From assembly GCA_028873575.1 (NCBI GenBank), contig JAGWHY010000014.1, positions 1 through 32,478 on the forward strand: a DNA stretch of 32,478 nt, written 5' to 3'. Shown here in pieces: positions 6,973-25,636 of the stretch. Under the pieces are notes generated by a model. The model ran no database searches, had not been told where the DNA came from, and worked only from the letters and a program-made list of their open reading frames with translations. This DNA comes from Acidobacteriota bacterium (GTDB lineage Bacteria > Actinomycetota > Acidimicrobiia > Acidimicrobiales > RAAP-2). Each line of letters starts with the position of its first letter. Within the stretch, counting starts at the first letter, position 1. The position numbers were made by a program, and so were the translations under genes.

Positions 6973-7509
6973 GTGACGTTTCCTATCCGCACCTTTGGTG
7001 ACCCGGTGCTCAATCAAGTCACCACCGACGTCGACAACATTGACGGCAAGATCGCCGCACTCGCGCAGTCCATGATTGAAACCATGTACGAGGCACCGGG
7101 CGTGGGACTCGCGGCGAACCAGGTCGGAATTCAAAAGCGTCTCTTCGTCTACGACGCGGGTGAGGGTGACGGTCCCAAGGTGATCGTGAATCCCCGGATC
7201 GTGGAGACCAGTGGTGAGTGGGTCTACGAAGAGGGCTGCCTGTCGGTCCCCGGGCTGAGTTGGGAAATTACCCGTCCTAACGCTGTTCACCTGCGCGGGT
7301 ACGACCTTGACGGCCACGAGCTCGACCTCGAAGTCGACGAGTTCGAGGGTCGTATCTTTCAACACGAGGTCGACCACCTCGACGGCGTGTTACTCATTGA
7401 GCGACTCAGCGACGAACAGCGTCGCGAGGCGAAGCGCCTGCTTCGTAAGCGCCGGTTACGTTTGAGCGCGGGTGACCCCGACGGGTTTCGTCAACTGTTG
7501 AGCGAGTAG
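6973..7509 (+). CDS. def: Peptide deformylase
   Basis: It removes the formyl group from the initiator methionine of new proteins, acting at the ribosome exit. All three family motifs are present: GVGLAANQ at residues 43-50, EEGCLSVPG at 86-94 and QHEVDHLDG at 130-138. The metal ligands are Cys89, His131 and His135, with Glu132 as catalytic acid/base. The 178-residue length is normal. GTG 6973 puts the conserved IRTFGDPVL block at the N-terminus. It is followed after 3 bases by fmt, whose product adds the formyl group that Def removes. Confidence 0.97.
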   Translation: MTFPIRTFGDPVLNQVTTDVDNIDGKIAALAQSMIETMYEAPGVGLAANQVGIQKRLFVYDAGEGDGPKVIVNPRIVETSGEWVYEEGCLSVPGLSWEITRPNAVHLRGYDLDGHELDLEVDEFEGRIFQHEVDHLDGVLLIERLSDEQRREAKRLLRKRRLRLSAGDPDGFRQLLSE

Positions 7510-11307: not shown

Positions 11308-11833
11308 GGAAACGCTCTTCGACCCCGTCGTGGCGGACGCGCTCGCGGCACGCGTCGGTGAGCACCAGGTGGGCAAAACCAACGGCGTCGGCAAAAGGAT
11401 TGCGATTGCCTGCGCGCGTTTCAATGGTGGCGTCACCACCCGCCTGCTCGAGGGCGCGCTCGACGCCCTCGACGAGGTGGGCGTCGATCGTCGTGACGTC
11501 ACGGTGGGGTGGGTGCCGGGCGCGTTCGAACTGCCTTTACTAGCCCTGCACTTCGCGGACGGTGAGCGCCCTTACGACGCCGTCATCACTTTCGGCGCCG
11601 TTATTCGTGGCGACACCGGACACTACGAACTCGTCGCCGGCGAATGCGCGCGAGGCGTGCAAGACGTGCAACTCAGCACGCGCGTCCCCGTCGTCTTCGG
11701 TGTCCTCACCACCGACACCGTGGCGCAGGCCCTCGAGCGCTCACGGCCCGACGCGACCAACAAAGGTCGCGAAGCGGTCTTTACCGCGCTCGAGATGATT
11801 GACGTACTGCGACAGGGCCCCGCCGGTTCATGA
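11294..11833 (+). CDS. ribH: 6,7-dimethyl-8-ribityllumazine synthase
   Basis: It condenses the RibA/RibD and RibB products into lumazine, usually as a 60-mer or smaller shell. Recognisable blocks are RIAIACARFNGGVTTRLLEGAL, VGWVPGAFELPLLAL, AVITFGAVIRGDTGHYELV (with the catalytic His) and PVVFGVLTTDTVAQALER followed by NKGREA. The 179-residue length exceeds the usual 155-160 because about 33 residues precede the core. ATG 11294 lies inside ribBA; an in-frame GTG at 11330 would remove part of the extension. The next gene begins at its stop codon (ATGA). Confidence 0.95.
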   Translation: MTSTEETLFDPVVADALAARVGEHQVGKTNGVGKRIAIACARFNGGVTTRLLEGALDALDEVGVDRRDVTVGWVPGAFELPLLALHFADGERPYDAVITFGAVIRGDTGHYELVAGECARGVQDVQLSTRVPVVFGVLTTDTVAQALERSRPDATNKGREAVFTALEMIDVLRQGPAGS

Positions 11834-15070: not shown

Positions 15071-15215
15071 TAACCTAAGTGGGTTGTTCACCGCAAGTGA
15101 GGTCAGTGCTTCTGACTTCCACCCTGCCACTGACGTGCGTCCGGGTCCTAGGTCGTTTGCGCCTCGCTTGCCGTGGCGGCACCCGCAGGGTGCCGTACAG
15201 AGCAAGGAGATAGTT
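15071..15215 (+). promoter_or_regulatory. infC operon promoter and structured 5' leader
   Basis: TAACCT (15071-15076) is a candidate -10, giving a leader of about 130 bases. The leader holds a hairpin at 15099-15119 (8-pair stem with one G-T pair, 5-base loop) and a perfect 8-pair hairpin at 15177-15195 with a GCA loop, closing 8 bases before the Shine-Dalgarno AAGGAG (15204-15209). Neither hairpin is followed by a T-run, so a translational control element is more likely than an attenuator. It does not look like the L20 leader I know from Firmicutes. Confidence 0.45.
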
Positions 15216-15827
15216 ATCGCAACAGTGCCCGGAGACCACCGTGTCAATGATCGCATCCGCGTGGACACCGTCCGATTGATTGACCAAGAAGGCAATCAAC
15301 GAGGGGTCATGGCAACCCGTGAGGCGTTGGCGCTCGCGAGGAGCCTGGATCTCGACTTGGTCGAGATCGCGCCGACCGCGCAGCCGCCGGTCTGTCGCAT
15401 CATGGATTACGGCAAGTTCAAGTTCGACGAAGCGCAAAAGGCGAAAGAGTCACGACGCAAGTCGCTGAACGTCGGCGTCAAGGAGATGAAGTATCGCCCG
15501 AAGATTGGCGCGGGCGACTTCGACACGAAGACGCGCCTGGTGGAAAAGTTCTTGGGCGAAGGTCACAAGGTCAAAGTCACGATCATGTTTCGTGGACGTG
15601 AGTCAGCTCACCCTGAACTAGGGAAGAAGATTCTTGACCGCATTATCGAGCGTCTCGACGAGGTGGCCAAGGTTGAATCGGCCCCCAAGCTCGACGGTCG
15701 CAACATGATTATGGTGCTGGGTCCGGACAAGAAGGTCCGCGCCAAGGGTGCCGAAGGAACGAAGGCGGAAACGCCGTCAGCGGTCGCGGCAGTTGCCGCG
15801 ACTGAAGGAATGATTGAGGAGGGCTGA
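15216..15827 (+). CDS. infC: Translation initiation factor IF-3, ATC start
   Basis: IF3 binds the 30S subunit, prevents premature 50S joining and rejects wrong start codons and tRNAs. The conserved N-terminal domain begins HRVNDRIRVDTVRLIDQEGNQRGVM and continues LDLVEIAPTAQPPVCRIMDYGKFKF; the C-terminal domain has EMKYRPKIGAGDFDTKTR and VKVTIMFRGRE, then an Ala/Lys-rich tail. AAGGAG lies 6 bases before ATC 15216, giving 203 residues. The first GTG (15225) is 15 bases from that site, and the in-frame ATG at 15084 adds 44 non-homologous residues. Rare AUU/AUC/AUA starts are typical of infC and let IF3 repress its own mRNA. Confidence 0.93.
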   Translation: MATVPGDHRVNDRIRVDTVRLIDQEGNQRGVMATREALALARSLDLDLVEIAPTAQPPVCRIMDYGKFKFDEAQKAKESRRKSLNVGVKEMKYRPKIGAGDFDTKTRLVEKFLGEGHKVKVTIMFRGRESAHPELGKKILDRIIERLDEVAKVESAPKLDGRNMIMVLGPDKKVRAKGAEGTKAETPSAVAAVAATEGMIEEG

Positions 15828-15828
15828 A

Positions 15829-16023
15829 ATGCCAAAGATGAAGACAGATTCAGGGGCGAAGAAGCGCGTCAAGATCACGGGTAGTGGTCGGCTGCGTCGC
15901 CGTAAGGCCTTCCGTGGTCACATTATGGAGAAAAAGAGTTCGGTGCGCACCCGTCGACTCGGTAAAGAGGCGGACATCTCGCCCGGTATCGAGAAGAACA
16001 TCAAGCGCATGCTGGGACTGTAG
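15829..16023 (+). CDS. rpmI: 50S ribosomal protein L35
   Basis: This is a 64-residue, strongly basic ribosomal protein. The sequence MPKMKTDSGAKKRVKITGSGRLRRRKAFRGH is diagnostic, and the end (DISPGIEKNIKRMLGL) is also typical. ATG 15829 follows the infC stop by 1 base and has GGAGGG about 6 bases upstream inside infC; a longer in-frame start would only add residues from the infC end. It lies in the universal infC-rpmI-rplT order. Nothing unusual is seen. Confidence 0.98.
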   Translation: MPKMKTDSGAKKRVKITGSGRLRRRKAFRGHIMEKKSSVRTRRLGKEADISPGIEKNIKRMLGL

Positions 16024-16050: not shown

Positions 16051-16410
16051 ATGGCTCGTGTAAAGAGAGCGGTAAACGCCAAGAAGCACCACAAGGCCGT
16101 ACTCGAAGAGGCCAAGGGTTACTACGGTGACCGCAGCCGGACCTTTCGCGCCGCGAACCAAGCCGTTCAGCACGCGGGCGTGTACGCCTTTCGTGACCGT
16201 CGCGCACGCAAAGGTGAGATGCGCAAGCTCTGGATTCAGCGCATCAACGCCGCCGCGCGCTTGCACGGCATGAGCTACAGCCGCTTTATCGCGGGTCTGT
16301 CGGCCGCGGGCGTGGAAGTGGACCGTCGCATGCTGGCCGACTTGGCCGTCAACGACGCGGCCGCCTTCGGGGCTTTGGTCGAACAGGCCACGACGGCCCT
16401 CGCGCAGTAG
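16051..16410 (+). CDS. rplT: 50S ribosomal protein L20
   Basis: L20 binds 23S rRNA and is needed early in 50S assembly; in several bacteria it also represses its own operon. The 119-residue product has the classic basic N-terminal helix [39 protein letters not shown] and the globular C-terminal part [37 protein letters not shown] stands 6-7 bases before the ATG. The gap after rpmI is 27 bases. The gene that follows has no normal start codon and may be translated by reinitiation after this stop. Confidence 0.98.
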
Positions 16411-16418
16411 GCACCGCG

Positions 16419-17237
16419 ATCGAGGCGCTGAGCTCGTCGCACCAGCGCGTTCGTCGGCTTCGCCGTCTCTCGACGAAGCGATCGCTGCGCTGGAGCGAAG
16501 GCGTGTGCGTTATTGAGGGTCCTGACCTCGTCGGGGCGGCTCTCGAGCAACGCGTGGAGTTCGAAGCGCTCTACGTCGACGTGGCGCGTCTCGACGCGGC
16601 GATGGAGGAGCTCGTGCGCCGTGCCGCGTCGGCTGGTGTGCGGACCTTCGGGCTGGAATCTGCGGTCTTTCAGCACGTGGCCGACACGAAGGCACCCCAG
16701 GGTGTCCTAGGCGCCGTGCGACTACCGGCCGTCGACCTAGCGTCACTGGTCACGCCGCGTACCCTCCTCGTACTGGTCGACGTGCAGGACCCGGGAAACG
16801 CGGGCACGCTCGTGCGTTCCGCGGACGCGTCGGGCGCGAGCGCGGTGGTCTTTACCCCGCACAGCGTCGACCCTTTTAACCCCAAGACACTGCGCGCGAC
16901 GGCGGGCTCGATCTTCCACGTGCCCATCGTGGTGGCGCCGTTCGACGTCCTGGAGGATTACTGCACCCACCACGGCGTCCAACTCGTGGCGAGCGTGGCG
17001 CGCGGAGGCGCCGACCCCCGCGACGCCAATCTTTCGCGCGCCAGCGCTCTGCTGGTCGGGAACGAGGCGACCGGTCTTTCGCCGGAGATCGAACGTTCGT
17101 GTGACCTCAGGGTCACGGTGCCGATGACCGGTCACGCGGAGTCCCTCAACGCCGGCGTCGCGGGCTCGCTACTCGCCTTCGAAGCCCTCTACCAACGGCG
17201 CGGCGCGGGGCACGACGTTCCACGTTCTAGCCTCTAG
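16419..17237 (+). CDS. TrmH/SpoU-family RNA 2'-O-methyltransferase, non-standard start
   Basis: It is a SAM-dependent 2'-O-ribose methylase of the knotted SPOUT class, probably acting on rRNA or tRNA. The catalytic domain has DVQDPGNAGTLVRSADASGA, LLVGNEATGLSPEI and a final VPMTGHAESLNAGVAGSLLAFEAL. The substrate-binding domain begins SSHQRVRRLRRLSTKRSLRWSEGVCVIEGPDLV. The first standard start, GTG 16503 (GGAG 7 bases before), would cut that block and give 244 residues. Upstream in frame there is no ATG, GTG or TTG for at least 180 bases. ATC 16419 (272 residues, just after the rplT stop) or CTG 16428 (269) restore it. The exact substrate is not known. Confidence 0.82.
   Translation: MEALSSSHQRVRRLRRLSTKRSLRWSEGVCVIEGPDLVGAALEQRVEFEALYVDVARLDAAMEELVRRAASAGVRTFGLESAVFQHVADTKAPQGVLGAVRLPAVDLASLVTPRTLLVLVDVQDPGNAGTLVRSADASGASAVVFTPHSVDPFNPKTLRATAGSIFHVPIVVAPFDVLEDYCTHHGVQLVASVARGGADPRDANLSRASALLVGNEATGLSPEIERSCDLRVTVPMTGHAESLNAGVAGSLLAFEALYQRRGAGHDVPRSSL
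17228..17233 (+). promoter_or_regulatory. -10 element of pheS, leaderless type
   Basis: TAGCCT, inside the last codons of the methyltransferase gene, ends 7 bases before the ATG of pheS. No Shine-Dalgarno is present in between, which favours a leaderless pheST transcript. Confidence 0.5.
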
Positions 17238-17240
17238 GTC

Positions 17241-18311
17241 ATGCCGGACGCTTCCCTGCGCGAACTCGACACCTTCGTGAACGACTCGCTGGCCCTTATC
17301 GAGGGCCTAGCGTCACTCGAGGACCTTCGCGAGGCTGAGGCAAGTTTGACGGGTCGTCGCTCACCTCTAGCCACCTGGCAGCGTTCGCTCGGCGCGCTCG
17401 AGCCCGACGAGCGCCGTAGTGCCGGGGCTCGGTTACAAGAAGCGCGTCGCACGCTTGAAGAGGCCCTCGCTCGTCGCGGCGAGGCGCTGCGCGACGTCGC
17501 ACGTCGAGAAAAACTCGACCGTGACGCGCTCGCGCTGGGTGACGTCGTGGTCGATCAGGTGCTGTGGCCACTTGGCGTGGGCCGAGCGGGTCTCGTCGCG
17601 CGTACGCAACGAGAGCTCGAAGACGTCTTCGTCGCGATGGGTTTCCAGGTCGCCGACGGACCCGAAGTCGAGAGTGACTGGTACAACTTTGAAGCGCTCA
17701 ACATACCCCCGGCCCACCCCGCGCGTGGCATGTGGGACACCTTCTACGTTGATTTAGGCGATCCCGAAACCGTGGTGTTGCGCACGCACACCTCGCCGAC
17801 GCAGATTCACCTCATGGAGGCCGCGGTCGCGAACGCGAGCCTGCCCATTCATTCGGTCATGCCGGGTCGTTGCTACCGGCGAGATACCCCTGACGCCCGC
17901 CACCTCGCCACCTTTCACCAAATTGAGGGGCTCGTCGTTGATCGCGCAATCTCCTTCGCCGACTTGGCGGGAACCATTGAGACCTTCACCCGGGCCTACT
18001 TCGGCGCCGACATTGCGTCGCGCCTGCGCCCGGCCTACTTTCCCTTCACGGAACCGTCCGCGGAGTTCGAAATTACCTGCACGATTTGTCGCGGCGGGGG
18101 CTGTCGTACCTGTTCGGGTACGGGGTGGATTGAGTTGGGGGGCTGTGGCATGTTGGATCCGGCCGTCCTCGAGGCAGTCGGTATCGACGGTGACGAGTGG
18201 AGCGGCTTCGCGTTCGGCTTTGGCATCGATCGTTGCGCGCAGATGCGACACCAAATTGCCGACATGCGCGCGCTTATCGACAACGACGTTCGTTTCCTGA
18301 GGCAGGTCTGA
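17241..18311 (+). CDS. pheS: Phenylalanyl-tRNA synthetase alpha subunit
   Basis: With PheT it forms the alpha2beta2 enzyme that charges tRNA-Phe. The 356-residue subunit has an N-terminal coiled-coil tRNA-binding arm (about 1-95, LEDLREAEASLTGRRSPLATW...) and the class II catalytic core: GFQVADGPEVESDWYNFEALNIPPAHPARGMWDTFY, LRTHTSPTQIHLM, MPGRCYRRDTPDARHLATFHQIEGLVVD (motif 2 region) and GFAFGFGIDRCAQMRHQI (motif 3). A CxxC-x4-CxxC segment (CTICRGGGCRTCSGTGWIELGG) before motif 3 could bind zinc; such a segment occurs in other bacterial PheS proteins. The stop shares one base with pheT. Confidence 0.97.
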   Translation: MPDASLRELDTFVNDSLALIEGLASLEDLREAEASLTGRRSPLATWQRSLGALEPDERRSAGARLQEARRTLEEALARRGEALRDVARREKLDRDALALGDVVVDQVLWPLGVGRAGLVARTQRELEDVFVAMGFQVADGPEVESDWYNFEALNIPPAHPARGMWDTFYVDLGDPETVVLRTHTSPTQIHLMEAAVANASLPIHSVMPGRCYRRDTPDARHLATFHQIEGLVVDRAISFADLAGTIETFTRAYFGADIASRLRPAYFPFTEPSAEFEITCTICRGGGCRTCSGTGWIELGGCGMLDPAVLEAVGIDGDEWSGFAFGFGIDRCAQMRHQIADMRALIDNDVRFLRQV

Positions 18312-20793: not shown

Positions 20794-21498
20794 GTGATCG
20801 AGTTCGTACCGTGGTCCCCCGAGGGTCGCCACTTCGCGCAGGAGTATCGCGTTCGACTCGGCGACGTGGACGCCCGCGGAATCGTACGCGTGGACGGCAT
20901 CGCGCGTTACCTCCAAGACATCGCCACGGACGACTGGGAAGACACGGGAGTTGAGTCGAGTGACGTCTGGGTTGTTCGACGAACCTCGCTGCGCCTGGTG
21001 CCGGGCGCCCGGTGGCCGACGTATCTCGACGCGATGCGTTTCGAGACGTGGTGCGGTGGGGTGGGCGCCGCGTGGGCCGAACGGCGCACCAACGTCTACG
21101 TCGACGAGGAACTTCGCCTCGAGGCCGTGGCTATTTGGGTGCCGACGGACCACGAAGGGCGTCCGGTGCGCATGCGCCCCAGTTTCTTTGAGGCCTACGG
21201 CGAAGGCGTGAAGGCCCGCAAAGTCTCGGGGCGCGTCGTCACGCCGCCGTTGAGCGCCGACGCGCCTCGTCGACCCTGGCCACTGCGTCGCTCCGACGTG
21301 GACATTGTGGGTCACGTGAACAACGCCGCACTCTGGGAAGCGGTGCACGAAATGGTCCGCGACGAGCATCGATTTATCACGGTGATCCATCACGGATCAG
21401 TCGAGTGGGGCGACGACGTCACGCTCGCCTGGGCCGAGAACCAGTTATGGCTCGTCGTGAACGGCGAAATTCGCGTTTCCGCTACCTACGGGCGCTAG
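20794..21498 (+). CDS. Acyl-ACP thioesterase-like double hotdog protein
   Basis: The 234-residue product has two hotdog repeats. The first is EYRVRLGDVDARGIVRVDGIARYLQDIATDDWEDTG with FETWCGGVGAAWAERRTNVY; the second is RRSDVDIVGHVNNAALWEAVHEMV, close to the HVNN motif of acyl-ACP and acyl-CoA thioesterases. It probably releases fatty acids from ACP or CoA, but chain length and carrier cannot be told. GTG 20794 follows the pheT stop by 11 bases, with only a weak AGG before it, so it may be coupled to pheT. Its last 54 bases overlap the convergent transporter gene. Its place behind pheST has no obvious functional reason. Confidence 0.82.
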   Translation: MIEFVPWSPEGRHFAQEYRVRLGDVDARGIVRVDGIARYLQDIATDDWEDTGVESSDVWVVRRTSLRLVPGARWPTYLDAMRFETWCGGVGAAWAERRTNVYVDEELRLEAVAIWVPTDHEGRPVRMRPSFFEAYGEGVKARKVSGRVVTPPLSADAPRRPWPLRRSDVDIVGHVNNAALWEAVHEMVRDEHRFITVIHHGSVEWGDDVTLAWAENQLWLVVNGEIRVSATYGR

Positions 21499-22368
21499 GT
21501 CCGGCGCCACCGCGACGTTTTTTGCCGCGCTCGTGGCCAGAACGCTGCCGGCCAGAACGAGCGGGAAGCCAATCGTGATCCCTATCGTGAGTGGCTCGTG
21601 CAAGATCGCCACGCCCAGCACCACCGCGATCGCGGTGTTGACGTAGGTCACGACCGTCGCGCGCGACGCGCCCACTTCTTGCACGAGTTCGTAGAAGCAC
21701 AAGAAGGCGCCCGCGGTGCACACCACCGACAGCACCGCGATGCTCGACCACGTCTCGCGGTTCACGTGGGTGGGGAGATGGCTCAGTGCCCAGGGCGACC
21801 ACGCTAGGGCGACGAAGGACGTCGCTCCGGCCACGATCGTGACGCCCGCCACGTCACGCAACTTCGAGGCGAGAATCGCGGGACCAATCGTGTAGCCCAG
21901 GCAGACGAGCAACATCGCCCCGATCCAGGGCAGGGAGCCGTGGCGAACGTCCAACCCGACGAGGGACGCGACGCCCACGGCGCCGATCAGTAGGCCGAGT
22001 AGTCGACGCGGCGAGACCTCTTCGTGGTGTCCGCGGAGGCGTTGACCCACGATGGAGAAGAGGGGCACGCTGCAGATCAACAGGCTGGTGAGTGAACTCG
22101 TGATGTGGCGCTCGGCGCTCGCCATGAAGTACCAGGGAATACCGAACTCGATGACGCCAAAGACGACGATCCACCGCCAGTGCGTGAGCAGGGCGCGCCC
22201 TTGGCCCCGGGCGATGACGAGGGGCCACAGTAAGAGTGCCGCGGGCGCGGTGCGCGCGAAGACCAAGACGCCGGGGTCCAGTTGACGCACCGCGACGCGA
22301 ATTAAGAGATACGGAATGCCCCAGATCACGGCCATGGCGAGAAAGAAGAGCCATCCGCGACGCGACAC
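21445..22368 (-). CDS. EamA/DMT-family membrane transporter
   Basis: It is a 307-residue inner-membrane protein with about ten hydrophobic helices arranged as two repeats of five, each with the EamA pattern: WGIPYLLIRVAVRQLDPGVLVFART in the first and GAFLCFYELVQEVGASRATVVTYVNTAIAVVLGVAILHEPLT in the second. Members export amino acids, nucleotides or drugs; the substrate cannot be read from the sequence. The short C-terminal tail after the last helix is polar and encoded in the region overlapping the thioesterase gene. The GTG start at 22368 lies 7 bases after a -10 hexamer, and the gene is divergent from the arginine operon. Confidence 0.9.
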   Translation of the reverse strand: MSRRGWLFFLAMAVIWGIPYLLIRVAVRQLDPGVLVFARTAPAALLLWPLVIARGQGRALLTHWRWIVVFGVIEFGIPWYFMASAERHITSSLTSLLICSVPLFSIVGQRLRGHHEEVSPRRLLGLLIGAVGVASLVGLDVRHGSLPWIGAMLLVCLGYTIGPAILASKLRDVAGVTIVAGATSFVALAWSPWALSHLPTHVNRETWSSIAVLSVVCTAGAFLCFYELVQEVGASRATVVTYVNTAIAVVLGVAILHEPLTIGITIGFPLVLAGSVLATSAAKNVAVAPDLAPVGSGNANFAVHDEP

Positions 22369-22375
22369 GACGGCC

Positions 22376-22381
22376 AGCCTA
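22376..22381 (-). promoter_or_regulatory. -10 element of the EamA transporter gene, leaderless type
   Basis: On the minus strand TAGGCT ends 7 bases before the GTG at 22368. The hexamer lies about 50 bases from the argC promoter on the other strand. Confidence 0.5.
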
Positions 22382-22418
22382 GTCGTTCGGCAGAAGTTCT
22401 GTACTTTTATTCTTTTTT

Positions 22419-24231: not shown

Positions 24232-25148
24232 CACGACACCTGCTGACGATCGACGAGCTGAGCGACGACGACCTGACCGAGCTCTACGCACTCGCGCGAG
24301 CGCCCTTCGACGACGAACTGCTGAAAGGTCAGGGTGTCGCCTTGGTCTTCGAGCGACCGAGTCTGCGTACGCGCGCCTCGAGCGCCACGGCGGTGGCGGA
24401 GTTGGGTGGATTCGCCACTTTCTTTAGCGACGACGAAATCGGCCTCGACCGCCGCGAATCGGCCGAGGACGTCGCGCGCACGCTCAGCGAGATGTACGCC
24501 ATCGCGGCACTGCGACTACGTCGCCACGACGTGTTCGCGCGCATGCGCGCGGCGACCAACGAACGTCTCGCTTTGATCAACCTGCTAAGTAGTGACGCGC
24601 ACCCGACGCAGGCGCTCGCCGACGTGCTGACCTTGGCCGACGAGTTCACGAACGGCAACGTCAACGAGCTCGAGGGTCTTCGCGTCGCGTACGTGGGTGA
24701 CGCGACGAACGTCACGCGCTCACTCGCGGTGGCGCTGACGCGACTCGGGGTGCACGTACGCGTGGGCGCGCCCGCGGGCTACCAGCTGAAAGAAGATGGC
24801 GCGGAGAACCCTTGGACCTTCGCGCGGCGAGGCTCCCTGGAACTTTTCGACAACGCGGTCGAGGCGGTTGACGGCGTGGACGCGATCTACACCGACGCGT
24901 GGGTTTCGATGGGCTTCGAAGACGAGGTCGCCCAACGACGTCTTGATCTTTCGTCGTTTCGCGTCGATGACGCGCTGGTTGCGCACGCGGCCACGCACGC
25001 CGTCGTGCTGCACTGCTTACCGGCACACCGGGGCGACGAAATCTCGGACAACGTCTTGGACTCGCCGCGCAGCCGCGTGTGGCGCCAGGTCTTTCATCGT
25101 CGCAGCGCCATGCGTGCGGCACTTCGTTGGATCAAGGAGGACGCGTGA
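24228..25148 (+). CDS. argF: Ornithine carbamoyltransferase
   Basis: It makes citrulline from ornithine and carbamoyl phosphate. The carbamoyl-phosphate loop is FERPSLRTRASS (a SLRTR variant of STRTR also found in other bacterial OTCases), followed by HPTQALADVLTL, VAYVGDATNVTRSL and DAWVSMG. The ornithine-binding HCLPAHRGDEIS sits near residue 263, with the diagnostic Cys that separates OTCases from aspartate carbamoyltransferases. The 306-residue length is normal. The GTG start overlaps the argB stop by 4 bases and the end overlaps argR by 4 bases. Its ornithine must come from argJ or argE genes outside this cluster. Confidence 0.95.
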   Translation: MTRHLLTIDELSDDDLTELYALARAPFDDELLKGQGVALVFERPSLRTRASSATAVAELGGFATFFSDDEIGLDRRESAEDVARTLSEMYAIAALRLRRHDVFARMRAATNERLALINLLSSDAHPTQALADVLTLADEFTNGNVNELEGLRVAYVGDATNVTRSLAVALTRLGVHVRVGAPAGYQLKEDGAENPWTFARRGSLELFDNAVEAVDGVDAIYTDAWVSMGFEDEVAQRRLDLSSFRVDDALVAHAATHAVVLHCLPAHRGDEISDNVLDSPRSRVWRQVFHRRSAMRAALRWIKEDA

Positions 25149-25636
25149 CGAAAACGCAACGCCAACATCGCATTAGTGAACTGCTGGAACACGAGGTCAT
25201 TTCGACCGCCGCGCAGGTGGTGAATCGCCTACAGTCCGAGGGCGTGAGCGCCACGCAAGCAACGGTGACGCGCGACCTCCAAGAACTCGGCACGATCAAG
25301 GTTCGTGATGAACACGGCGCGCGTCGAATCGTGCTGGCGGCGTCGCCCAAGTTGGCGCCGGCCCCCTTAGATCACCTGCGACGGATGATGGGCGAGTGGG
25401 TGATCTCCGTGGAAAGTTCTGGCAATCTCGTCGTCGTGCGCACCCCACCGGGTTGCGCGCACGTCGTCGCCTCCGCGTTGGACCGCAGTGCACTCGAGGG
25501 GGTGCTCGGTAGCGTCGCCGGAGACGACACAATTCTCGTGATCGCGACGGAAGCTCGCGGTGGCGCGGCGTTGTCGAAGGAGTTCCGGGATCTTTCCGGA
25601 CTGGGTGAATTAAACGAAGTAAGGAGCGATCGATAA
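25145..25636 (+). CDS. argR: Arginine repressor ArgR
   Basis: It is a hexameric arginine-dependent repressor of 163 residues. The winged-helix domain (about 1-72) reads RQHRISELLEHEVISTAAQVVNRLQSEGVSATQATVTRDLQELGTIKVRDEHG. The C-terminal arginine-binding/oligomerisation domain (about 88-155) has NLVVVRTPPGCAHVVASALDR and GSVAGDDTILVIATEARGGAAL, keeping the Asp pair that contacts arginine. GTG 25145 overlaps the argF stop; GGAGG 4 bases upstream serves it. An in-frame ATG at 25079 would add 22 residues from argF and is not supported. It probably binds the site over the argC -10, so it represses its own operon. Confidence 0.95.
   Translation: MTKTQRQHRISELLEHEVISTAAQVVNRLQSEGVSATQATVTRDLQELGTIKVRDEHGARRIVLAASPKLAPAPLDHLRRMMGEWVISVESSGNLVVVRTPPGCAHVVASALDRSALEGVLGSVAGDDTILVIATEARGGAALSKEFRDLSGLGELNEVRSDR

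What the first reader, a model, noticed from the sequence alone, without database searches (positions are those of the whole stretch)
16408..16505. Methyltransferase gene after rplT has no ATG/GTG/TTG at its conserved N-terminus
The frame encodes SSHQRVRRLRRLSTKRSLRWSEG, matching the start of TrmH-family proteins, but no standard start occurs in frame for at least 180 bases before GTG 16503. ATC 16419 (8 bases after the rplT stop) and CTG 16428 would restore the domain. If ATC is used, both infC and the last gene of its operon would depend on an IF3-discriminated start, so IF3 level could tune this rRNA/tRNA methylase. That link is speculative.
Basis: partly seen in the sequence, partly recalled or inferred. 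Interest (0 to 1): 0.6.

Follow-up and report, generated by a model that had tools for sequence, protein, structure and literature searches.

The report
rRNA methylase gene with non-standard start
A gene for a ribosomal-RNA methylase next to the ribosomal protein gene rplT appears to begin with the weak codon ATC (CTG in many relatives) instead of a normal start codon, which probably keeps its output low and may tie it to initiation factor IF3, as is known for a few other bacterial genes.

Summary
The methylase frame has no ATG/GTG/TTG from 16218 to GTG 16503, and starting there would remove a strand, two helices and an invariant Glu. It is not a sequencing error. In the genus (96 of 99 genomes read) the two codons at the gene's beginning are most often CTG-ATC/ATT (40 of 96); 80 of 96 have only CTG and/or ATC/ATT there, 12 have GTG or TTG, none ATG, 4 none of these. 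Where no NTG precedes it (window: GCG-ATC), ATC/ATT stands in 26 of 33. In other genera of the family 57 of 59 junctions have CTG overlapping the rplT stop (CTGA), 52 without a standard start nearby. Gene spacing changes frame between species, against readthrough or frameshifting. Of 19 window frames compared, only this one and infC lack a standard start. Most likely ribosomes ending rplT reinitiate weakly at ATC 16419, holding an RlmR/YsgA-like 23S rRNA methylase below ribosomal-protein level. IF3 repression is plausible (known for infC and Streptomyces sigR) but untested. pheS follows after 3 nt, so the gene is not last. CTG 16428 is rejected.

The parts
15204..15209 (+). AAGGAG, Shine-Dalgarno of infC
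   Evidence: sequence; anti-SD duplex energy upstream of infC averages -8.1 kcal/mol in 84 genus loci
15216..15827 (+). infC (IF3), ATC start
   Evidence: Pfam IF3_N/IF3_C, TIGR00168; ATC in 84 of 84 genus loci measured
15829..16023 (+). rpmI (L35), ATG start
   Evidence: ATG in 86 of 89 genus loci measured; name by position and sequence, not by a family search
16051..16410 (+). rplT (L20), stop TAG 16408-16410
   Evidence: ATG start in 90 of 91 genus loci measured; name by position and sequence, not by a family search
16406..16411 (+). AGTAGG, weak Shine-Dalgarno-like word, 7 nt before ATC
   Evidence: sequence; anti-SD energy -3.4 kcal/mol
16419..16421 (+). ATC, proposed start codon
   Evidence: ATC/ATT in 71 of 96 genus genomes and in 26 of the 33 without NTG one codon earlier
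16419..17237 (+). SpoU/TrmH-class RNA 2'-O-methyltransferase, RlmR/YsgA-like
   Evidence: PF00588 + PF22435; best folds RlmR 9h1k and YsgA 7qiu
16428..16430 (+). CTG, rejected alternative start
   Evidence: not conserved: CTC in nearest relative
16503..16505 (+). GTG, rejected start (would remove 28 residues)
17241..18311 (+). pheS, ATG start, 3 nt downstream
   Evidence: PF01409; ATG in 54 of 54 genus loci measured

Best explanation
The methylase is translated from ATC 16419. Ribosomes finish rplT at TAG 16408-16410 and a small fraction reinitiate 8 nt downstream at ATC with fMet-tRNA, helped by a weak AGTAGG. The older start in the order is probably CTG, usually overlapping the rplT stop (CTGA). 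In this genus the rplT stop lies further upstream, giving TAG-spacer-CTG-ATC; in the window's lineage and several others CTG is absent and ATC serves. The weak start is most simply a fixed attenuator that keeps a low-demand rRNA-modifying enzyme well below the ribosomal proteins made from the same cluster. Because ATC and CTG are codons that IF3 discriminates against, output should also rise when IF3 is scarce. Shown by sequence: the anatomy, the conservation and the absence of standard alternatives. Inferred: initiation at ATC, reinitiation, co-transcription, low output, IF3 sensitivity, direction of change.
For: Genus, 96 genomes read out of 99: codon -8 (counted from the conserved His) is CTG in 54, TTG 5, GTG 4; codon -7 is ATC in 65, ATT 6, GTG 3; ATG in neither. 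Ninety-two of 96 have NTG at -8 or ATC/ATT/GTG at -7. Of 33 without NTG at -8, 26 have ATC/ATT and 3 GTG at -7. Codon -9, just upstream, has no codon above 14 of 96 and 28 kinds, so constraint begins at -8/-7. The distance from rplT stop to the ATC column is 2, 5, 6, 7, 8, 9, 11, 12 or 13, in all three frames. Start class changes at least 16 times on a tree of 94 genus proteins, and no tip has ATG. Other genera of the family: 57 of 59 junctions with adjacent rplT are CTGA in the right frame, 52 with no standard start near. SD words lie 3-11 nt before CTG in 55 of 82 CTGA loci against a mean of 6% (maximum 17%) at shifted positions. Local control: of 19 window reading frames compared with up to 19 neighbourhoods, 15 have a conserved NTG at a plausible start and two more have NTG a few codons off register; only infC and the methylase lack one. 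Structure and Glu27 argue against GTG 16503. One normal initiator tRNA (CAU) was seen, and no other initiator-like tRNA among 32 distinct tRNA genes examined, of 42 in the genome.
Against: No expression or N-terminal data for this organism. Reported CUG efficiency in E. coli is only 0.86% of AUG (passage of PMC11497404), and a CUG toeprint in Caulobacter dnaA proved unused in vivo (passages of PMC8443254). Four related genomes (G062, G048, G043, G060) have neither NTG at -8 nor ATC/ATT/GTG at -7, so the pattern is not universal. The tree-based independent-pairs test for 'ATC kept when CTG is lost' is not significant (5 usable pairs, median p = 1), and the plain Fisher test gives p = 0.079. Much of the CTGA pattern may reflect rplT: the base before TGA is C in 83 of 84 overlap junctions, but also in 49 of 56 rpmI, 42 of 71 infC and 13 of 16 non-overlapping rplT stops (17 of 98 for the methylase's own stop). 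The SD enrichment could partly reflect the RplT C-terminal sequence. Five of the 57 CTGA junctions have a standard codon a little downstream. The window's SD is weak (-3.4 kcal/mol).
Confidence: 0.75

Rival explanations
1. The protein starts at GTG 16503 and is 28 residues shorter.
For: It is the first standard start in the frame, so a gene caller restricted to ATG/GTG/TTG would choose it.
Against: Removes strand 2-4, helices 9-19 and 24-27 and invariant Glu27; cuts 20 positions of PF22435; NTG at this column in only 21% of 19 relatives.
Confidence: 0.04
2. Translation starts at CTG 16428 (codon 4).
For: CTG in the window; TTG (38) or CTG (28) in this column of 96 genus genomes.
Against: The column is CTC, TTA, CTA, ATC, GTC or TGG in 30 of 96, including CTC in the nearest relative; an ordinary Leu codon explains this.
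Confidence: 0.08
3. Stop readthrough or frameshifting makes an RplT-methylase fusion.
For: In many genus members rplT and the methylase share a frame across TAG (TAG at codon -11 in 54 and at -10 in 15 of 96); the overlap or gap is short.
Against: The spacing changes frame between relatives (2 to 13 nt, all three frames); in the window the two genes are in different frames. No slippery-site search was made.
Confidence: 0.04
4. The weak start is an IF3-controlled switch selected to couple rRNA methylation to IF3 level, paired with infC.
For: infC and this gene are the only two of 19 window frames compared without a standard start; infC is ATC in the genus and ATA or ATC in other genera of the family where it could be read; IF3 represses the GTC start of sigR in Streptomyces (passages of PMC5472188).
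Against: Twelve of 96 genus genomes and at least 16 of 45 sampled genomes of other families in the order have standard starts in this gene, so such control is dispensable; a fixed attenuator explains the same data; no physiological data.
Confidence: 0.2

Closest known systems
infC (IF3) with ATT/ATC/ATA start and autoregulation
   Same: Non-standard start in the same gene cluster; ATC in the window for both genes
   Different: infC has a strong SD (mean -8.1 kcal/mol) and stays ATC in the genus; the methylase has a weaker SD, sits next to the rplT stop and changes between CTG, ATC, TTG and GTG
Streptomyces sigR, GTC start repressed by IF3 (PMC5472188, passages read)
   Same: Conserved non-standard start in an actinobacterium, misplaced by gene callers
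   Different: sigR has an extensive SD (AGGAGGTG) and shown IF3 repression; the first is not met and the second not tested here
Staphylococcus aureus ccpN (AUA) and cvfC1 (AUU) (PMC13009471, passages read)
   Same: Conserved weak starts that lower output (about 10% of AUG in poor medium, up to 30% for ccpN in rich medium)
   Different: Those carry extended SD pairing; here the constant feature is closeness to an upstream stop, and CTG is the commonest codon
RlmR (Thermus) and YsgA (Bacillus) 23S rRNA methyltransferases
   Same: Closest solved folds, TM-score about 0.8, 29-33% identity
   Different: Target nucleotide of the window enzyme is not tested

Membership tests
Genes with a conserved non-standard start codon | No ATG/GTG/TTG at the conserved N-terminus | tested here: met
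Genes with a conserved non-standard start codon | The non-standard codon is kept across species | tested here: met
   Only CTG and/or ATC/ATT at the two columns in 80 of 96 genus genomes; CTGA in 57 of 59 junctions of other genera. Met for the class of weak codons; ATC itself is not universal
Genes with a conserved non-standard start codon | Initiation at that codon shown by profiling, peptides or mutation | not testable with these tools
   no expression data for these organisms
IF3-repressed starts (infC, sigR) | Output changes with IF3 level or IF3 fidelity mutants | not testable with these tools
   inference from codon class only
IF3-repressed starts (infC, sigR) | Strong or extended SD supporting the weak codon | tested here: not met
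   window -3.4 kcal/mol, genus mean -5.0, against infC -8.1
Translationally coupled gene pair | Start within a few nt of the upstream stop, kept across relatives | tested here: met
Translationally coupled gene pair | Downstream output depends on translation of the upstream gene | not testable with these tools
   needs a reporter
RlmR/YsgA-like SpoU methyltransferase | SpoU catalytic domain plus MRM3-like N-terminal domain | tested here: met
   folds
RlmB, TsnR/NshR or TrmH equivalogs | Score above the curated NCBIfam cut-off | tested here: not met
   all below cut-off, e.g. TIGR00186 100 bits against 160, NF000477 65 against 425

The most novel reading that the evidence does not exclude
In Actinomycetota the rRNA methylase behind rplT is held for long evolutionary times on near-cognate start codons (CTG, ATC, perhaps ACG) that replace one another, seldom become standard in the window's family and are ATG in none of 96 genomes of the genus, because its synthesis is set by IF3-sensitive reinitiation after rplT, making infC and an rRNA-modifying gene of the same cluster co-regulated through initiation fidelity.
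Probability: 0.25. Interest if true: 0.75.

Novelty: new variant of a known kind. Interest (0 to 1): 0.6.

Why it matters
CUG is reported as 0.024% of bacterial start codons (passage of PMC11497404). A conserved CTG/ATC start over a whole family and part of an order would mean that gene callers limited to ATG/GTG/TTG miss or truncate the same enzyme in many genomes, and would add an rRNA modification enzyme to the short list of genes whose output can be set by initiation fidelity. It also gives a natural series of start-codon states (CTG, CTG-ATC, ATC, TTG, GTG) for studying how start codons evolve.

Tried and rejected
CTG 16428, GTG 16503, readthrough or frameshift fusion, and sequencing error were each considered and rejected (see rivals; the arrangement recurs in independent assemblies). 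A special initiator tRNA was looked for in 32 distinct tRNA genes of the 42 in the genome and not found. The idea that C before TGA in rplT proves selection for CTG was weakened by controls: C is also common before TGA in rpmI, infC and non-overlapping rplT. The independent-pairs test gave no support for exchange of CTG and ATC, and Fisher's test was p = 0.079. The anti-SD energy control for the CTGA set was unusable (a control mean of +64, distorted by positions without a duplex) and is not cited. The conserved-boundary screen (33 frames) flagged many frames because alignments run on into overlapping genes; it was replaced, which took 20 of those 33 (plus-strand frames with 14 or more relatives; one, 24983-25624, was not located, leaving 19; a minus-strand gene at 21448-22413 and frames with few relatives were left out). 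Literature: ten searches listed no paper that I recognised as being on the start of this gene; only open-access PubMed Central is held and only listings and passages were read. Two of these returned no papers at all.

Rows dropped: G054 and G098 (only paralogue-like hits, not fetched) and G008 (contig ends inside the gene); G039 and G086 were too short for the tree. L018 (G021) starts 3 nt before the ATC column. G007 and G082 carry in-frame stops in the gene but were kept in counts. Of 73 genomes of other genera of the family drawn, regions of 60 were fetched. Of the genomes searched, 45 of 114 of other families in the order and 15 of 89 of other orders in the class were fetched, chosen mostly one per family among the better matches, so those proportions are a sample.

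Full report
OBSERVATION. The methylase frame after rplT is open from 16218 and its first standard start codon is GTG 16503. ATC 16419 lies 8 bases after the rplT stop TAG 16408-16410, CTG at 16428. The protein is a SpoU/TrmH-class RNA 2'-O-methyltransferase: PF00588 and PF22435, and its closest solved folds are RlmR of Thermus (9h1k, 9muj) and YsgA of Bacillus (7qiu), TM about 0.8 (sequence search). NCBIfam equivalogs RlmB, TsnR/NshR and TrmH are all below their cut-offs. A start at GTG 16503 would remove strand 2-4 and helices 9-19 and 24-27 of a confident model and Glu27, invariant in 28 aligned sequences. So the coding region must begin well upstream of GTG 16503.

CLOSE RELATIVES. The window lies in a 1.8 Mb draft genome, 95 contigs. 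Named relatives in a second collection are mostly uncultured Acidimicrobiales/Acidimicrobiaceae by their titles. Of 99 genomes of the genus searched, 96 could be read at the junction. Counting codons from the conserved His, codon -8 is CTG in 54, TTG in 5, GTG in 4 and something else in 33; codon -7 is ATC in 65, ATT in 6, GTG in 3. No genome has ATG in either column. CTG followed by ATC/ATT is the commonest pair, 40 of 96. The window has GCG-ATC, its nearest relative (86% identical) GCG-ATC, the next (66%) ACG-ATT. Of the 33 without NTG at -8, 25 have ATC, 1 ATT, 3 GTG and 4 (G062, G048, G043, G060) none of these. Among the 54 with CTG, codon -7 is CTC, CTA, CCC, AAC, ACC, AGT, ACT or CGC in 14. 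The codon upstream, -9, shows 28 kinds with none above 14 of 96, so constraint begins at these two codons.

SPACING. The distance from the rplT stop to the ATC column is 2, 5, 6, 7, 8, 9, 11, 12 or 13 nt in different genus members, so the two genes stand in different relative frames in different species. In 69 of 96 an in-frame TAG stands at codon -11 (54) or -10 (15), leaving no room for an upstream start. Both facts argue against readthrough, frameshifting or a start inside rplT as the general solution.

TREE. On a quick tree of 94 genus proteins plus 6 others, presence of NTG at -8 changes at least 14 times, ATC/ATT/GTG at -7 at least 9 times, and start class 16 times. Support is moderate and one outgroup row falls among the genus by long-branch joining. 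The formal tests of exchange between CTG and ATC are not significant (Fisher p = 0.079). The pattern is suggestive, not proven statistically.

WIDER GROUPS. In other genera of the family, 59 of 60 fetched loci had adjacent rplT; 57 of 59 have CTG overlapping the rplT TGA in the methylase frame (CTGA), 52 of them with no standard start near and 5 with one a few codons downstream. In other families of the order, 24 of 45 sampled genomes have CTGA in frame (18 with no standard start near, 6 with one), 16 have a standard start and no overlap, and 5 have neither; of those 5, G181, G239, G206 and G210 carry an in-frame CTG without overlap. In other orders of the class, 9 of 15 sampled had adjacent rplT: 5 with a standard start and no overlap, 1 with TTGA, 2 with CTGA (one of them with a standard start near), 1 with neither. 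Elsewhere in the phylum, of 30 loci of the family around G451, 27 have some standard start within 150 nt upstream or just inside the compared region; L353, L372 and L373 have none and a CTGA in frame, and L346 and L347 have CTGA with a GTG further inside. In the family around G425, L333, L377, L378 and L381, of 14 loci that reach the N-terminus, have CTGA and no standard start. CTG is therefore likely the older state in the order, and ATC a derived state in part of the window's genus; this direction is inferred from distribution, not from ancestral reconstruction.

CONTROLS. In genus loci where the alignment reached the start, rpmI starts with ATG in 86 of 89, rplT in 90 of 91, pheS in 54 of 54, infC with ATC in 84 of 84. 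infC is ATC or ATA in the other genera of the family where the start could be read by eye (one locus, L215, aligned out of register). Of 19 window reading frames compared with up to 19 neighbourhoods, 15 have a conserved NTG at a plausible start. The two doubtful ones have NTG a few codons off register: 19 of 19 relatives for the gene at 11830, and 8 of 14 for that at 6973, where the other six align only further inside or lack the start (by eye). Only infC and the methylase lack one, so this neighbourhood does not use odd starts freely. SD words (GGAG, GAGG, AGGA) lie 3-11 nt before CTG in 55 of 82 CTGA loci, 32 at exactly 7 nt, against a mean of 6% and maximum of 17% at shifted positions in rplT. 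Against this, C before TGA is a wider habit of these operons: 83 of 84 overlap junctions, but also 49 of 56 rpmI, 42 of 71 infC and 13 of 16 non-overlapping rplT stops. CTGA alone therefore does not prove selection for CTG; the stronger evidence is that CTG stands in 54 of 96 genus genomes where the rplT stop no longer overlaps it, and that GTG or TTG stands in the same column in nine others. In the window's genus the SD is weak (mean -5.0, window -3.4, infC -8.1 kcal/mol).

MECHANISM. I conclude that translation starts at ATC 16419 by reinitiation after rplT, as an attenuator (0.75). IF3 sensitivity follows from the codon class: IF3 represses non-standard starts, infC is ATC in Streptomyces and IF3 autoregulates, and IF3 represses the GTC start of sigR (passages of PMC5472188). 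S. aureus ccpN and cvfC1 show conserved AUA/AUU starts lowering output, there with extended SD pairing (passages of PMC13009471). PMC11497404 (passages) quotes CUG as 0.024% of bacterial starts and 0.86% as efficient as AUG. PMC10158994 (passages) reports that IF3 favours stronger codon-anticodon pairs. PMC8443254 (passages) is a caution: a CUG toeprint in Caulobacter dnaA was not used in vivo. No special initiator tRNA was found among 32 of 42 tRNA genes.

The methylase is not the last gene: pheS begins 3 nt after it and pheT follows. CTG 16428 is not conserved. Whether the genes share one transcript was not tested.

NOVELTY. Conserved weak starts and IF3-repressed starts are known. What I did not find in the listings of ten searches of open-access papers is this gene, a CTG/ATC start conserved over a family and part of an order, or such turnover among weak starts next to an upstream stop. 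I file it as a new variant of a known kind.

Noticed in passing
L153, L160, L161, L163 (G062, G048, G043, G060): A clade of the genus has neither NTG nor ATC/ATT/GTG at the two start columns; after the rplT stop comes GCGACGCACCCGGTCGACATCGGC (variant in G060). Its start is unexplained; ACG, GTC or ATC are candidates. Two of the four have an in-frame GTG 70 codons upstream inside rplT.
   Followed up: partly
L342, L383, L379, L384 (family of G425, elsewhere in the phylum): No standard start near the N-terminus; an ACG stands 0-3 nt after the rplT stop in all four, possibly an ACG start.
   Followed up: no
L321, L322, L325, L344: A short reading frame beginning ATGGGGTTCGC lies at or just after the rplT stop, before the methylase.
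   Followed up: no
infC of other genera in the family, e.g. L181, L195: infC start is ATA in many genera and ATC in others.
   Followed up: partly
G007 and G082 (L162, L151): In-frame stops within the methylase gene of two draft genomes, assembly error or decay.
   Followed up: no
G000:C87:40299-40856 (L002): A second, distant methylase of the same class (34% identical) in the window's genome.
   Followed up: no
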